Source of the DNA: Nanobdellota archaeon
GTDB taxonomy: Archaea > Nanobdellota > Nanobdellia > Pacearchaeales > GW2011-AR1
Assembly: GCA_018815925.1 (NCBI GenBank)
Contig: JAHIWS010000028.1
Coordinates: 1-56,236 of the forward strand
Length of the DNA: 56,236 nt
Direction: 5' to 3'
The position numbers and the translations under genes were made by a program. Each line of letters starts with the position of its first letter. Within the stretch, counting starts at the first letter, position 1. This document shows, in pieces, positions 49,761 through 56,236 of this stretch. Below the pieces are notes generated by a model. It ran no database searches. It had not been told where the DNA came from and worked only from the letters and a program-made list of their open reading frames with translations.

Positions 49761-51059
49761 TTATTCTGTAGACCCTTTCAAATGCAAAAAACCTAAAAAA
49801 ATAATATTTGCTAATGAAACCCCCAATATCATTATTAATGTAATCATTGAAGGAGTAATCCAACTTAACCCACTTATACTCATCATCATTAATAAAAGCA
49901 TTAAGATCATTGGGGCGGCAATAACTACACTTATGTAAATATCCATAAATGTTTCAGCAGCTTTTGTTTGTTTTTCTTTGTCAATTCTATGTTCAAAAAG
50001 AAGTGTTTGAGATCTTTTATCAAAGAATTCTGGAAGGTCACCCCCTGAATTTATTGTTGTTGCTACACCATTTAATAAGTCTGCAAGTTTTTTACTAGGG
50101 CTGTTGAATGCAACATTTCTAAGAGAAGTAGCTAAATTATATCCATAAACATTAGTTTCATTAATTATTTTTATAAATTCTTTTTCTATTGCAGGATATT
50201 CTTTTGTTGAGATGATTATACTGAATATTTTTCCAGGTTCAATTAGTGATCCAGAAATAGCAGCCATGTGTATTGTAGCAAATGGTAGTTCTCTGTTAAT
50301 CTTAATTTCAGCAGTTTTTTTTTCTAAAGATGGATAAAAATACATAATTAAAAAAGTTGCTATTGGAACTATAAATAAAATCCAAAATACCTTAACAAAT
50401 CTTGTACCTAGGTTTTCTGTAACAGAAGTTATTATTGGAAAACTAGACCCAATATTAAAAAATAAGAAAAATAAAAATATAACAATTCCCCCTAATACTG
50501 AAAACAAGGTGGTTAACAAAATTATAGATATATAGGTGATTGGTGTAGTTTGTATTTTTGATTTTATAAGGTCTCTTCCTAAGGTCCTGAATGATGTTTT
50601 TTTAATTAAAGAAGTAGCGAGGCCAGAAAAAGTTTTATTTGCTAATTGAAGATATCTACTAGGTTTTTCTCTTTTTCTCTTTTTCTCTTTTTCTTTTTTC
50701 TTTCTAAATCGTTTTAGAGTTTCTTCTTCAAGTTTTGATATTCCCATATTTATTTTAGGTTTTTCAGTTGGGATAAATGTTTTTTTAATTGGAACCGAAA
50801 TTCTTTTAACATTTGGTGTTTCCTTTATTTGAAGAAGGGGTTTTGAAAGGTTTATTCTTTCAAGATTGATCATAATATTTTTACTTATTGTTTTCAATGA
50901 ATCTTTTAAAGAATTTATCTGAGAATCTAACATCTTTTTTTCAGCAAGATTATCTTCTTTATCCAGAGAAATAAATAAAGATTTTAATTCCCTAATTATT
51001 GTTTTCTCTTTTGAAATATTATTTTTTAATTCTTTTACAAAATCCTTTTTTGAAATCAT
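49761..51059 (-). CDS. Type IV pilus platform protein (TadB/FlaJ-like), first copy
   Basis: 432 aa. N-terminal coiled coil about 1-100 (KKDFVKELKNNISKEKTIIR), a very basic linker (RKKEKEKKRKREKPSRY), two membrane helices near 170-250, the cytoplasmic T2SSF core (INRELPFATIHMAAISGSLI, GYNLATSLRNVAFNSPSKKL, GVATTINSGGDLPEFF), and two final helices. The N-terminal coiled coil is an addition to the usual fold. Its ATG overlaps the stop of a 54-aa ORF. Confidence 0.85.
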   Translation of the reverse strand: MISKKDFVKELKNNISKEKTIIRELKSLFISLDKEDNLAEKKMLDSQINSLKDSLKTISKNIMINLERINLSKPLLQIKETPNVKRISVPIKKTFIPTEKPKINMGISKLEEETLKRFRKKKEKEKKRKREKPSRYLQLANKTFSGLATSLIKKTSFRTLGRDLIKSKIQTTPITYISIILLTTLFSVLGGIVIFLFFLFFNIGSSFPIITSVTENLGTRFVKVFWILFIVPIATFLIMYFYPSLEKKTAEIKINRELPFATIHMAAISGSLIEPGKIFSIIISTKEYPAIEKEFIKIINETNVYGYNLATSLRNVAFNSPSKKLADLLNGVATTINSGGDLPEFFDKRSQTLLFEHRIDKEKQTKAAETFMDIYISVVIAAPMILMLLLMMMSISGLSWITPSMITLIMILGVSLANIIFLGFLHLKGSTE

Positions 51060-51220
51060 TTAATTTCTCCATTAATTTTTTTTTGTACCTGTAGAATAAA
51101 TTTTTTTGCTTTGTTGAATTTTTCAGAGTTTTTACTATTGTATGCTTGTTCTAGTTGAATCCCAGCTTCTTCAACAGAATTAACTATCTGATTAAGAAAT
51201 TCTATATGCTCTTTTTCCAT
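51056..51220 (-). CDS. 54-aa coiled-coil protein between HEPN and platform gene
   Basis: ATG at 51220 reads MEKEHIEFLNQIVNSVEEAG, IQLEQAYNSKNSEKFNKAKK, then FILQVQKKINGEIK. The stop TGA overlaps the platform gene's ATG as ATGA, and the start overlaps the HEPN 3' end by 19 nt. Coding is supported by this operon fit and by helical heptad-like sequence with no forbidden features. No family recognised; perhaps a partner of the platform coiled coil. Confidence 0.7.
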   Translation of the reverse strand: MEKEHIEFLNQIVNSVEEAGIQLEQAYNSKNSEKFNKAKKFILQVQKKINGEIK

Positions 51221-51642
51221 TTTTCGCTTCTTTTTAGATATTTTTTTATTATTTCTTTCCTTAATAATGAAATCTCTTTTATTATACTTTTTGCTTCTTC
51301 TACAGGAATATCTTTTCCATAGTAATTTATCTGGTTTTTAATCTTCCTAAATTTGTTAAAATTTACAGAAGAGCTTTTATCGTGACATATTTCTTCTAAA
51401 AATGCACAAAAACATTCGTGATTATATATTTTAAAACATTTTTTTATTACTAAAACTTCAAGAATTTCTCTTAATGATTCATAGCCCACACTAACTTTAG
51501 TAGAAGCAGTTGTTTCATCAAGTTCTAATCTTTTATTGCTCTCAAATTTCTTTTTACTTGATTTAATAAGTGAGTTAATTAGATTTGTATCTATTTTAAT
51601 TCTTTTTACAAGTTTTTTATCCTTACATTCTTTCCAATCCAT
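51202..51642 (-). CDS. HEPN-domain protein paired with MNT (second pair)
   Basis: 146 aa all-helical. VGYESLREILEVLVIKKCFK and IYNHECFCAFLEEIC match the HEPN helix pair, including the HE. The motif region is K102-N-Q-I-N-Y107-Y108-G-K: both the Arg and the His of Rx4-6H are replaced (Lys, Tyr), but the NxIxYYGK core equals that of the first pair (RNSITYYGK). Its start overlaps the MNT stop by 1 nt. Probably a regulatory or substrate HEPN, not an active RNase. Confidence 0.8.
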   Translation of the reverse strand: MDWKECKDKKLVKRIKIDTNLINSLIKSSKKKFESNKRLELDETTASTKVSVGYESLREILEVLVIKKCFKIYNHECFCAFLEEICHDKSSSVNFNKFRKIKNQINYYGKDIPVEEAKSIIKEISLLRKEIIKKYLKRSEKWKKSI

Positions 51643-52151
51643 TATATTATTTCCCCTCCAAGAACATATCCATTAAGTATATTCATTTTAAGTTCTTTAC
51701 TCTTTATTTTATCTATTGAATCAAATTTAAATGATTGTATGTTTCTTTTAATTTCCTTTTCAAACTTTTCAAAATTAACTTTTTTACTTATTTTACCAAA
51801 CACTGCTAAATCAATATCAGAGTCTTTTTTTGTTTCTAATTTAGATAGGGATCCAAACAAAATAATATAAGGATAATGGAGATTATCATTTAAATATTCA
51901 ATAATTCTTTTTAATTTTTCCTTCCAGTATATTCTAGATAAATCTTTTAAAACAAAACTTTCTCTGTTGGCTCTAAATAATAAATACCCTCTTTCTCCTC
52001 TTTTTTTGAGTAAATTTTCTTTTTCAAATTTTTTTAATAAATTTGATGCTGTTGGTGGGCTTACTCCCATAAGTCTAGAGTATTCTCTGACTCCTACCTC
52101 AATATAACAGTCCTCAAAAAAAGGTGAAAGATTGTTAATTATATTTAACAT
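51642..52151 (-). CDS. Winged-helix MNT nucleotidyltransferase (second pair)
   Basis: 169 aa. N-terminal winged helix (VGVREYSRLMGVSPPTASNL, LKKFEKENLLKKRGERGYLL). Nucleotidyltransferase core: IILFGSLSKLETKKDSDIDL then AVFG (GS...DxD). C-terminus NILNGYVLGGEII resembles the first pair's NILNGIVLSGSVDL. Leaderless start behind a TATA box that is bracketed by an inverted repeat. Sits between the ATPase and platform genes of the pilus cluster. Confidence 0.85.
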   Translation of the reverse strand: MLNIINNLSPFFEDCYIEVGVREYSRLMGVSPPTASNLLKKFEKENLLKKRGERGYLLFRANRESFVLKDLSRIYWKEKLKRIIEYLNDNLHYPYIILFGSLSKLETKKDSDIDLAVFGKISKKVNFEKFEKEIKRNIQSFKFDSIDKIKSKELKMNILNGYVLGGEII

Positions 52152-52191
52152 ATGTAAAGGATACTTAACAGATGTTTATAAATCTTTACAT
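52152..52191. promoter_or_regulatory. Inverted repeat around the second MNT/HEPN promoter
   Basis: ATGTAAAG (52152-52159) and CTTTACAT (52184-52191) form perfect 8-bp arms with 32 bp between centres, about three helical turns. They enclose the TATA box (GTTTATAAA, 52174-52182, palindromic core) and abut the MNT ATG at 52151. This is the geometry of an autoregulatory operator for the MNT's own winged helix. Confidence 0.6.
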
Positions 52192-52206
52192 TTAATATTT
52201 TAACTT

Positions 52207-53769
52207 TTACATAATCCCAAATTTTCTTAGGGTCTGCTCTGGCTTTTTATAATATTGGTTAATTACATCCTGAACTTCTTCAAACTTAAAAATCTTATTT
52301 TTATATAAAGCATAAATCAATCGAACTCTTTTTTTAAATTCTAGTTCAAGTTCCTCTAGTCTTAATCCATATCTTTGAGAAATTTTTTCAAATATTTTGC
52401 TATTTTTCTTAAAGTAAAACTGATCATCACGAGGATTCCATTTAAAAGGGGTATTTGTCAAAGCTATTCCATTTGAATTTATATTAACAATTTCAGCTAT
52501 TTCCTTAAGTTTTCTTGTTTCTTGTTTATTTACTATTGCATGAGTCATAATACAAACACAATCAAGAATATTTAGCAGAGTTGGAGAAAGTTCAATTGGA
52601 GGAGTTTCTAATCTTTTTATCACAGTATCTACAGAATCTGCATGCATTGTGCTTAGAGATGAGTGTCCTGAGGCCATTCCTTGAAATAAAACATAAGTTT
52701 CTTTTCCTCTTACCTCCCCCACTATTACATAGTCTGGATTTTGTCTAAAAGAACTTTTTAGTAAGGTAAATAAATTTACTTCACCAGCTTTTTCTATTCC
52801 TGTAGCATTTCTAACAATACTTGGAAGCCAGTTTTCTCTTGGAAGGTTTAATTCCCTTGTGTCTTCAATTGAAACAACTCTTGCTTCAGGAGGAATAAAA
52901 AATACAATAGCATTTAACAAAGTGGTTTTTCCAGAAGAGGTTCCTCCAGTAATAAGAAGATTCATTTTGTACTGAATTAATATCCAAAGATAAGCAAGCA
53001 TTTCTGCACTTAAAGTTTTTAATGATATTAATTGGGTTGGAGTCCAGGGAGTTTTTGTGAATTTTCTTATTGTAAATGTTGGACCTCTGCTAGTAATGTC
53101 CTTGGTGTATGTAGCATTTACTCTGCTCCCATCAGGTAAACTACCATCTAAAATAGGATTAGAATAAGAGATATATTTACCACATCTTTGAGCAAGTTTT
53201 TCAACAAAATTTGACAGCTTATTACTGTTTTTAAATTTAATATTTGTTTTTATGTTTCTGTACAGTCTGTGCACAATATAAATAGGAGTATTAATTCCAT
53301 TACACTCAATATCTTCAACAAAATAATCTCTTAACAAAGGATCTGTTTCATTAAATCCTATAAAATCCCTGGCAAGATAATAAAATATTTTTTGATAAGA
53401 TTCATAAGGTAAATCTATTCCAAGTTCGATAGCAAGTATTTTAAATCTTTTATCAATATAGTCTAAAAGAGTTTCTTGATTTTTTTCTATGACAGTATCA
53501 AAATTAATCATATCCCTCATCGCAGAAATTATCTGGTTTTTGTAAATGATTTCTTTCTCATTAAGATATGGCTCTTCAACTTCATAAACTAATTCATATT
53601 CTTTAGGATCCCAATAAATATGTGCAAAAGAAAAAGGAGATATAAGGCTATATCTTACATTTATCTTACTTTTATCTTTAATCTTCTTTAAATGAGGTAT
53701 TTTTGGAGTAAATTTTATTTCAACTCTTTGGTAATTTTGTATGTTTATTCTTTTTTCTTTTTGTAACAT
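52207..53769 (-). CDS. Type IV pilus/archaellum-type secretion ATPase
   Basis: 520 aa, PilT/GspE superfamily (FlaI/TadA-like). N-terminal domain 1-150, then DPLLRDYFVEDIECNGINTP, DGSLPDGSRVNATYT and TFTIRKFTKTPWTPTQLI. Walker A GGTSSGKT (275-282), Asp box SIEDTREL, Walker B DYVIVGEVRGKE (346-357), His box GMASGHSSLSTMHADSVDTV. Powers pilin assembly through the platform proteins. Follows the QxxxE prepilin gene by 1 nt. Confidence 0.93.
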   Translation of the reverse strand: MLQKEKRINIQNYQRVEIKFTPKIPHLKKIKDKSKINVRYSLISPFSFAHIYWDPKEYELVYEVEEPYLNEKEIIYKNQIISAMRDMINFDTVIEKNQETLLDYIDKRFKILAIELGIDLPYESYQKIFYYLARDFIGFNETDPLLRDYFVEDIECNGINTPIYIVHRLYRNIKTNIKFKNSNKLSNFVEKLAQRCGKYISYSNPILDGSLPDGSRVNATYTKDITSRGPTFTIRKFTKTPWTPTQLISLKTLSAEMLAYLWILIQYKMNLLITGGTSSGKTTLLNAIVFFIPPEARVVSIEDTRELNLPRENWLPSIVRNATGIEKAGEVNLFTLLKSSFRQNPDYVIVGEVRGKETYVLFQGMASGHSSLSTMHADSVDTVIKRLETPPIELSPTLLNILDCVCIMTHAIVNKQETRKLKEIAEIVNINSNGIALTNTPFKWNPRDDQFYFKKNSKIFEKISQRYGLRLEELELEFKKRVRLIYALYKNKIFKFEEVQDVINQYYKKPEQTLRKFGIM

Positions 53770-53770
53770 T

Positions 53771-54295
53771 TTAATTTAATTCAACATCTATTATTGTTGG
53801 TGTTCCTCCTTTATTTGAAAAAAATACATTATAAGGTGTTGGAGCCTTAGGAATTATTTTTAATTCATCTATTGAATTAAAAGTTATATTATATGTATTA
53901 TTATAAGTCCTTGTTAAAGTGACTTTATTAGAATTACCTATTTTTTCAGTGTGTACAACCAATGTCCCATAAGATATATCTTCTCCTGGTTGGCTATACA
54001 TATCCTTGCTATCCATCTCAAATACAATTTTATCATTTTCTGAATCTATTTTTAACACACCTTTTCTTAATCCAAGCTCAACTAATCTTTTATTTCCTAA
54101 TCCTCCTTCATCTAGTTCTAAAATGATTGTATCTATATTTTCCATTATAGTGATTGATTGTTCAATTATGGCTCTATCTTGCATTTCATCTATTTTAGGT
54201 TTTACAAAAGATAATACTAAACCAATCATAACTAAGGCAATTAGGGTGTAAATTACTGTCTCTACCCAAATTTGACCTCTTGTTTTTTTCTTCAT
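53771..54295 (-). CDS. Prepilin with class III signal peptide
   Basis: 174 aa. KKKTRG is the basic leader, cleavage expected before QIWVETVIYTLIALVMIGLV, with Glu at +5. This is the archaeal prepilin peptidase (PibD/EppA-type) pattern. A long helix (KPKIDEMQDRAIIEQSITIM) and a C-terminal beta domain (GTLVVHTEKIGNSNKVTL) follow. First gene of the pilus cluster, directly upstream of the ATPase. The prepilin peptidase is not in the window. Confidence 0.8.
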   Translation of the reverse strand: MKKKTRGQIWVETVIYTLIALVMIGLVLSFVKPKIDEMQDRAIIEQSITIMENIDTIILELDEGGLGNKRLVELGLRKGVLKIDSENDKIVFEMDSKDMYSQPGEDISYGTLVVHTEKIGNSNKVTLTRTYNNTYNITFNSIDELKIIPKAPTPYNVFFSNKGGTPTIIDVELN

Positions 54296-54401: not shown

Positions 54402-55355
54402 TTAGTCCCTACTGGAATTATATAAATTTGTTGCTAATTTTTCTAACATAGAAGTATTTTCTACATTTTTGATCCAATTTCCAGGGATTTTAGAAATACT
54501 ATTATATGCTCCACTAATTGCTCCTGTAATACAAGCAATTGTATCTGAGTCACCATCTGTATTAGCTGCTAATAATACTGATTTTTTATAATCATTTGGT
54601 GAACTTAAAAAACAATATAAAGAAGCTGCTACAGCTTCTTCTCCTATCCAACCATCTCCAAGAAAATGAACACCTTTAATTAAATCTAATTTTTTAGCTT
54701 GAGATATTTCTTTTATTTTTGAATTAAATTCATTAACATCAAAGTTCATTTTTTTGCCTGTTTTTTCCATAAAATCAATTAACATTGTTTCATACTTGTT
54801 TGGATCAACATTTTTAACAGCCAAACTTGTAAGATAAGCTGTTGCAATTCCAGATGCAATTCCAGAGTTATGTCCATGTGTACATTTACTTACTGCATAA
54901 GAAACTTCTGCAAGTTTTTCTTCACCATTAAAATAAAATAAACCTATTGGTGCACTTCTCATTGCTGCACCACAACCCTTTGAATTATTATCCCCTGATT
55001 TTCTCCAATCAATACCTTTTTCTAAATTCCTACATCCAGATAAACATGTATTTCCAGGAGCCCTGTTATTTTCAGGATCATGAAGCCATTTAACAAATTC
55101 ATTAGAAACATATTTCATCACATTATCAACTGAATAATGTTCTCTACTTGCTTTTATTAGTCCATTAGCAACAGCTATGCTCATTTGTGCATCATCACTA
55201 TATTTTTTTCCAATAAAATCTGTTAATCCTTTTTCTCCAAATAATTTTTTAATTTCAGAATACCTCATAAATTCTACAGCATAACCTAGTTGATCTCCTA
55301 TTGCTAAACCATAGACTGCTCCTTTAAACTTACTTAAAAGGTTGATTTTCTTCAT
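54402..55355 (-). CDS. ADP-ribosylglycohydrolase (DraG/ARH), likely immunity protein
   Basis: 317 aa, all-helical ADP-ribosyl hydrolase fold. FKGAVYGLAIGDQLGYAVEF (10-29) is the start signature. YSDDAQM supplies Asp54 and Asp55 of the di-metal site (family TDDTxM). KGCGAAMRSAPIGLF matches GNGxxMRxxP. NTDGDSDTIACITGAISGAY carries Asp269 and Asp271 of the second metal set. The key residues are intact, so an active enzyme that removes ADP-ribose from arginine is expected. It lies 52 nt downstream of an RHS protein with an ADP-ribosyltransferase-like tip, the classic position of an immunity gene. Confidence 0.92.
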   Translation of the reverse strand: MKKINLLSKFKGAVYGLAIGDQLGYAVEFMRYSEIKKLFGEKGLTDFIGKKYSDDAQMSIAVANGLIKASREHYSVDNVMKYVSNEFVKWLHDPENNRAPGNTCLSGCRNLEKGIDWRKSGDNNSKGCGAAMRSAPIGLFYFNGEEKLAEVSYAVSKCTHGHNSGIASGIATAYLTSLAVKNVDPNKYETMLIDFMEKTGKKMNFDVNEFNSKIKEISQAKKLDLIKGVHFLGDGWIGEEAVAASLYCFLSSPNDYKKSVLLAANTDGDSDTIACITGAISGAYNSISKIPGNWIKNVENTSMLEKLATNLYNSSRD

Positions 55356-55407
55356 AAAATCTAATTTCTAGAAGCCTTTATAAACTTTCTTAGTGACCTA
55401 AAAAATA

Positions 55408-56236
55408 CTATTCTACAGGTTTTAATTTAAGAATTTTATAATCTGTTAAAGGTTCTCCAACAAATATTTCCCTTTCATAGCTAAGAGCATCAGATGCTTC
55501 ATAATCTCCTTTCCCATAAGGTATTTCTCTTACAAGTGGATTTTCCATATCAACTTTTGCTTCTATAAAAACTTTAAATTGTGGTTCAGGTGTCCTTTCA
55601 AATTTAGTATCTCTATAAAAAACCTCTGCAGCAGATTTATCCCAACTTGTGCTTAAACCAAATTTATTAGAATTAGGTCCAACTTCATGAACATGAAAAA
55701 GAGAAACTTTTTCTATCCCAATTCTTTCAATCTCTTCTTTTGCTGCTTCTGCAAATTCATTAGCACCACCATAATTTTTGTTATAATAAGGTTCACCTTC
55801 TATTATTTTTGACAACATTTTTTTACCTATAACATCCCCCCTATACACTTTCCTAATCATTCCTCCAACTCCAGCCAAATCCCCGTTTTGCATATCTTGT
55901 TTTAAAGAAGTTGGTTGACCCATAGAAGTAAGGGCTTCTCCAATTCCTGCTAATAAAGGATTAGGACCCCACATATCACCTTGTGTTTTTGACAAATGAG
56001 TAAAAGATTCTCCAATTTTTCTAAGACCCCAATTGATAGGATTATCAACAGGTTTATTAATAAAATTATGAATATTACTATCTCCGTCTGCATTCCCACT
56101 AGGATCAATATACTTCAAAGGATTATTTTTAACATACACATATCTATTTAATGAAAGAGGATCAGCAATTCCTCCCCTTACAACATCTGCTTGCATAAAT
56201 CTTCCTAATTCAGATTTATAATATCGAGCACCATAA
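55408..56236 (-). CDS. RHS-repeat protein C-terminus with ADP-ribosyltransferase-like toxin domain (partial)
   Basis: Open to the window edge; the first Met (56196) is internal. Upstream codons give YGARYYKSELGRFM, then QADVV and LSLNRYVYVKNNPLKYIDPS, the RHS core that precedes variable toxin tips. Numbering from that Met, the tip (about 40-262) shows VYRG (Arg119), FGLSTSWDKSAA (S182-T-S184) and SYEREIF (Glu241-x-Glu243), in the order R, STS, ExE of arginine-type ADP-ribosyltransferases. The tip assignment rests on motif order and spacing, not an alignment. The next gene on the strand is an ADP-ribosylglycohydrolase, which fits a toxin-immunity pair. The N-terminal bulk is outside the window. 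Confidence 0.8.
   Translation of the reverse strand, partial: YGARYYKSELGRFMQADVVRGGIADPLSLNRYVYVKNNPLKYIDPSGNADGDSNIHNFINKPVDNPINWGLRKIGESFTHLSKTQGDMWGPNPLLAGIGEALTSMGQPTSLKQDMQNGDLAGVGGMIRKVYRGDVIGKKMLSKIIEGEPYYNKNYGGANEFAEAAKEEIERIGIEKVSLFHVHEVGPNSNKFGLSTSWDKSAAEVFYRDTKFERTPEPQFKVFIEAKVDMENPLVREIPYGKGDYEASDALSYEREIFVGEPLTDYKILKLKPVE

What the first reader, a model, noticed from the sequence alone, without database searches (positions are those of the whole stretch)
54402..56236. RHS polymorphic toxin with ADP-ribosyltransferase tip and ADP-ribosylglycohydrolase immunity in an archaeon
Seen: the RHS core end (YGARYYKSELGRF, then YVKNNPLKYIDPS), followed by a C-terminal tip with VYRG, GLSTSW and YEREI in the order of R-STS-ExE transferases. 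52 nt downstream lies a DraG/ARH-type hydrolase with both metal-binding Asp sets intact. Known: ExE-type transferases modify Arg; ARH1/DraG remove ADP-ribose from Arg; bacterial Tre1/Tri1 pairs an ADP-ribosylating effector with an ARH-type immunity protein and targets FtsZ. Inferred: this is an equivalent contact or secreted toxin system, perhaps aimed at the archaeal host or at rival episymbionts.
Basis: partly seen in the sequence, partly recalled or inferred. Interest (0 to 1): 0.88.

Follow-up and report, generated by a model that had tools for sequence, protein, structure and literature searches.

The report
Archaeal toxin cassette with possible antidote
At the end of this contig from a tiny, probably symbiotic archaeon lies the tail of a secreted toxin that probably attaches ADP-ribose to proteins, next to an enzyme able to remove it; the toxin seems to belong to a little-noticed archaeal kind of RHS system in which shell and swappable toxin ends are made as separate secreted proteins.

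Summary
The contig ends inside an RHS core end followed by a 228-residue tip carrying YRG, STS and ERE in the right order. An intact ADP-ribosylglycohydrolase (PF03747, E 6.5e-68) starts 52 nt downstream. The tip matched no Pfam, NCBIfam or PDB entry and no genome searched, and its single-sequence fold failed (pLDDT 31), so "ART" rests on motifs and context: likely, not shown. ARH as antidote has bacterial precedent (Imm-ARG with R-S-E ART toxins) but is weak here: one example, an own TATA-like box, nearest relatives not beside RHS genes.
The first 141 bp are identical to the end of contig C19, which continues into another tip and then RHS shell genes lacking the core end. In this phylum 43 of 371 sampled genomes carry RHS core ends; 87 of 98 lie in short frames (650 aa or less). 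Most complete ones read out have a signal-peptide-like start, core end and variable tip. Long secreted proteins nearby carry the repeats without the core end. This is a split RHS system with exchangeable secreted toxin subunits, resembling TcB/TcC; I found no description of it in the papers searched.

The parts
55408..56235 (-). RHS core-end + tip ORF, 275 aa, 5' end beyond the contig
56092..56235 (-). RHS-associated core end (residues 1-48), with the conserved Asp pair of the self-cleavage site (GRFxxxD: D17; DPSG: D44)
   Evidence: TIGR03696 E 5.1e-13; both Asp invariant across relatives
56096..56236 (.). 141 bp identical to the end of contig C19 of the same assembly: fork between two different tips
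55411..55848 (-). Putative ADP-ribosyltransferase domain (residues 130-275)
   Evidence: motif order only; no family match, no homologue found, model uninformative
55840..55842 (-). Arg of the YRG motif
   Evidence: sequence
55645..55653 (-). STS motif
   Evidence: sequence
55468..55476 (-). ExE motif (Glu-Arg-Glu)
   Evidence: sequence
54402..55355 (-). ADP-ribosylglycohydrolase (ARH/DraG family), 317 aa, no signal peptide
   Evidence: PF03747 E 6.5e-68; best PDB match 1t5j MJ1187 2e-29
55191..55196 (-). First metal-binding Asp pair of ARH (SDD)
   Evidence: sequence; alignment
54543..54557 (-). Second metal-binding set of ARH (DGDSD, followed by T)
   Evidence: sequence; alignment
55377..55384 (-). 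TATA-like box TTTATAAA 29 nt upstream of the ARH start: possible own leaderless promoter
   Evidence: motif upstream of 23/58 ORFs, background 12.7%

Best explanation
The feature is the 3' end of a short secreted toxin subunit ('cassette') of a split RHS system in a woesearchaeote-like DPANN archaeon. The cassette would be made as signal peptide + RHS core end + tip. It would dock onto a separately made, secreted RHS shell such as the 1354-aa and 818-aa proteins of contig C19, complete the shell, cleave itself after DPSG by the Asp pair, and release the tip into a target cell. The tip is most likely an R-S-E clade ADP-ribosyltransferase. The cytosolic ARH next door most likely protects the producer and its kin by removing ADP-ribose from arginine. 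Shown: the core end, the ARH, the motif order, the assembly fork, and the split architecture in the phylum. Inferred: that this cassette is short, ART activity, ARH immunity, docking, self-cleavage, and the target.
For: Core end confirmed. The first 141 bp are shared exactly with C19, which carries a second tip followed by ORFs of 1354 and 818 aa that start with signal-peptide-like stretches and carry RHS repeats but no core end. No third contig of the assembly holds the core end, and RHS repeats occur only on C19, as expected if the repeated upstream node is short. In the phylum 98 core ends occur in 43/371 genomes, 87 of them in frames of 650 aa or less. In loci read out, 29 complete short cassettes were found: 23 with a signal-peptide-like start, 12 followed within 120 nt by a 70-320 aa ORF on the same strand, 7 followed by another cassette. 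Shells score on YD repeats and on NF041261 positions 490-763 but not on TIGR03696; cassettes score on TIGR03696 and, in one case, NF041261 1153-1260. R-STS-ExE order in 8/20,000 shuffles. ARG-domain immunity proteins strictly accompany R-S-E ART toxins in bacteria (PMC3482391). Separately encoded C subunits fill one RHS shell in Yersinia entomophaga (PMC11067744).
Against: No homologue of the tip was found in any search, and the single-sequence fold failed, so ART is motif-based. The pair is seen once. The closest ARHs (51, 47, 44%) are not beside RHS genes. The ARH has its own TATA-like box. The 5' end of this cassette is not in the assembly. About one in nine core ends in the phylum sits in a long frame, so a fused form is possible here.
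Confidence: 0.5

Rival explanations
1. The ARH is an ordinary, independently expressed hydrolase of this lineage that happens to border the toxin array; it is not the immunity gene of this tip.
For: PF03747 occurs in 31/371 genomes of the phylum at 35 places and only this one touches an RHS core end. Nearest relatives lie beside unrelated genes. It has its own TATA-like box and is larger than the usual immunity-sized neighbours.
Against: Only three genomes of the sample hold both ARH and core ends (12 core ends), so chance adjacency is about 0.01 by my estimate. It sits where immunity-sized genes sit in this phylum. The functional match with an R-S-E type tip has bacterial precedent.
Confidence: 0.3
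2. The tip has the ART fold but acts as an NAD(P) glycohydrolase (Tne5-like) or modifies a non-arginine target, or is not an ART at all.
For: An ART-fold Rhs toxin that is a NADase is described (PMC13285283). No family match for this tip.
Against: The ExE form is the arginine-type signature (general knowledge), and an ARH-family hydrolase sits next to it.
Confidence: 0.25
3. The tip is the end of a conventional single-chain RHS protein whose repeats lie beyond the contig edge.
For: About 11 of 98 core ends in the phylum lie in frames above 650 aa, for example a 1574-aa protein in L171.
Against: A unique long upstream gene should have assembled into a contig ending in the shared 141 bp; none is in the assembly. 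The C19 shells lack the core end.
Confidence: 0.2

Closest known systems
Tox-ART-RSE with Imm-ADP-RGHD (Imm-ARG) polymorphic toxins (Zhang et al. 2012, PMC3482391)
   Same: RHS-type carrier, R-S-E type tip, ARG-domain hydrolase as next gene
   Different: Reported there in bacteria; here a DPANN archaeon, the tip matches no known family, the ARH has its own TATA-like box, and there is one example only
Tc/ABC toxins, TcB + TcC with several interchangeable C subunits (PMC11067744)
   Same: RHS shell built from separate proteins, toxin on the subunit that carries the core end, several toxin subunits per shell
   Different: Split lies near the end of the repeats, cassettes are only about 300-500 aa, most with their own signal-peptide-like start; TcA was not searched for
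Tre1/Tri1 of Serratia proteamaculans
   Different: ARH lacks the Tri1 N-terminal extension and is far below the Tri1 cut-off; no T6SS context seen

Membership tests
RHS polymorphic toxin | RHS-associated core end followed by a variable tip | tested here: met
   TIGR03696 over cut-off; a different tip on the same core end in C19
RHS polymorphic toxin | RHS/YD repeats in the same polypeptide | tested here: inconclusive
   Contig ends; repeats found only on C19 in separate ORFs
R-S-E clade ADP-ribosyltransferase | R, STS, ExE motifs in order | tested here: met
   Sequence; 8/20,000 shuffles, post hoc
R-S-E clade ADP-ribosyltransferase | Detectable homology to a known ART family | tested here: not met
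   No Pfam, NCBIfam, PADLOC or PDB match
R-S-E clade ADP-ribosyltransferase | ART fold | tested here: inconclusive
   AlphaFold2 single sequence, mean pLDDT 30.6
ADP-ribosylglycohydrolase PF03747 | Profile match over curated cut-off and intact metal sites | tested here: met
   229.9 bits against 26.2; SDD and DGDSDT
Tri1 (NF041672) | Equivalog score and N-terminal extension | tested here: not met
   87.8 bits against 490; match starts at profile position 65
Imm-ARG immunity protein | Recurrent linkage to R-S-E ART toxins | tested here: not met
   1 of 35 ARH places beside a core end; relatives beside unrelated genes; the tip itself has no homologues with which to test recurrence
Tc toxin TcB/TcC | Shell and toxin subunit in separate genes | tested here: met
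   Phylum-wide short cassettes and core-less shells; for this very cassette inferred
Tc toxin TcB/TcC | TcA translocation channel | not tested
   Not searched for

The most novel reading that the evidence does not exclude
DPANN archaea use a split RHS weapon: one secreted shell is armed in trans by any of several small secreted toxin subunits, each made of signal peptide, core end and tip. One such subunit here is an arginine ADP-ribosyltransferase whose producer is protected enzymatically by an ARH.
Probability: 0.4. Interest if true: 0.8.

Novelty: new variant of a known kind. Interest (0 to 1): 0.6.

Why it matters
How DPANN archaea attack, invade or compete is largely unknown. A shell with several separately secreted, interchangeable toxin subunits gives candidate effectors and immunity genes that can be expressed singly. 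It would be the RHS solution reduced to a very small toxin carrier, and an enzymatic antidote in an archaeon would extend a pairing so far reported from bacteria.

Tried and rejected
Tip homologues: tblastn in plasmids and phages, pattern scans of viral and genome collections, whole-genome searches of 371 phylum, 181 family, 378 class and 9 cassette-rich family genomes (samples overlap). No real relative; the best hit, G410, overlaps a tyrosine-recombinase-like ORF and is judged chance. AlphaFold2 on the tip alone gave pLDDT 31 and was not taken to a fold search. phrog_33878 at E 0.033 was judged chance. Among 80 RHS loci from public genomes none has a relative of the tip or of the ARH nearby. 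Strain variation as the cause of the C26/C19 fork is not excluded. Binning error for C19 is possible, but its composition agrees with the window (tetranucleotide correlation 0.956 against 0.949-0.981 for stretches of the window). The other end of C19 joins no contig of the assembly.

Full report
Observation. The window is a whole contig (C26 of a 929,670-base, 29-contig assembly, 87.7% complete). Its right edge cuts a 275-residue open frame whose first 47 residues are the end of an RHS-associated core (TIGR03696, E 5.1e-13), followed by a 228-residue tip with VYRGD, GLSTSW and YEREI in that order. An ARH-family gene of 317 residues starts 52 nt after the stop, on the same strand, with both metal-binding sets.

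The tip. It matches nothing in Pfam, NCBIfam, PADLOC or the PDB by sequence, and no relative was found in any collection or genome searched. A single-sequence AlphaFold model is uninformative (pLDDT 30.6). The motif order is unlikely by chance (8 of 20,000 shuffles, with a pattern written after seeing the sequence). My own estimate is about 0.7 for an ART fold and somewhat less for arginine transferase activity; an ART-fold NADase (Tne5, PMC13285283) is the best alternative.

The ARH. It is a clear PF03747 enzyme closest in the PDB to MJ1187 and not a Tri1 equivalog. ARG-domain proteins are known enzymatic immunity proteins that accompany R-S-E ART toxins in bacteria (PMC3482391). Against a dedicated role here: 35 ARH places in 31 of 371 phylum genomes, only this one beside a core end; nearest relatives (51, 47 and 44%) lie beside unrelated genes; and a TATA-like box lies 29 nt before its start. 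For it: in this phylum the gene after a cassette is often an immunity-sized ORF, and only three sampled genomes hold both ARH and core ends, so chance adjacency is about 0.01 by my estimate.

The carrier. The first 141 bases of the frame are identical to the end of contig C19, after which the sequences differ. C19 carries another tip and then two ORFs of 1354 and 818 aa with signal-peptide-like starts and RHS repeats; the second has a dockerin domain, and neither has the core end. This is what a repeated core end does to a k=141 assembly (inference). No further contig holds the core end, and RHS repeats are found only on C19.

Relatives. A scan with the core end gave three DPANN records at the top: Woesearchaeota L047, Micrarchaeota L048 and Nanoarchaeota L049. 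L047 holds five, and its fuller stretch L163 six, tandem ORFs of 346-413 aa, each with a signal-peptide-like start, the core end and a different tip, after two long secreted ORFs of 1765 and 1218 aa. In 371 genomes of the phylum 43 carry 98 core ends, 87 of them in frames of 650 aa or less (frames cut by contig ends are counted too). Of 29 complete short cassettes read out, 23 have a signal-peptide-like start by a simple hydropathy test, 12 are followed by a small ORF on the same strand and 7 by another cassette. Shells carry YD repeats but no TIGR03696, and cassettes carry TIGR03696. The split falls at about the same point in L047, C19 and L048: shells stop after the YLY..G..IYEE stretch, and cassettes contribute the Y..DHLGS stretch and what follows.

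Mechanism. By analogy with TcB/TcC, where separately encoded C subunits fill one RHS shell (PMC11067744), and with Rhs self-cleavage by an aspartyl protease (PMC8765631), I propose that secreted cassettes complete a secreted shell, cleave after the core end and release the tip. The Asp pair is invariant in the cassettes aligned. Docking, cleavage, delivery and target are inferred, not shown.

Literature. Archaeal polymorphic toxins, including RHS cassettes in Methanosarcina, are known (PMC3482391), and archaeal polymorphic toxin loci have been discussed alongside DPANN genomes (PMC6393860). I found no paper in the library describing DPANN RHS systems with separate toxin subunits. That search is limited to open-licence papers.

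Noticed in passing
L047:2608-8041 (L163:9503-16143): Array of tandem secreted core-end cassettes with no immunity genes between them; tips look by eye like metallopeptidases (HELSH, HETGH), a transglutaminase-like C-H-D protein and caspase-like proteins. Lack of immunity genes may mean targets outside the producer's cytosol.
   Followed up: partly
L003:145-2601 and L048:5579-7984: RHS shell proteins of the own genome and of a Micrarchaeota share a Cys-rich start and a dockerin-like end in place of the core end.
   Followed up: partly
L049:1-987 and L047:5822-6862: A marine Nanoarchaeota and a Woesearchaeota share, by eye, the same transglutaminase-like tip on the core end, suggesting exchange of cassettes.
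   Followed up: no
49761-54295: Type IV pilus or archaellum-like genes (TadC-like, secretion ATPase, pilin-like protein, named by eye) lie directly downstream of the ARH on the same strand.
   Followed up: no
L195:5124-6738 and L198:169-1843: The closest ARH relatives in G333 and G331 share an uncharacterised 227-228 aa neighbour, a possible functional partner.
   Followed up: partly
L003:6715-7392: Second tip (about 225 aa) of the own genome on C19 matches no family.
   Followed up: partly
L170, L164, L003 and the window edge: Several assemblies of this phylum break inside RHS cassettes or shells, so such toxins are probably under-counted in MAGs.
   Followed up: no
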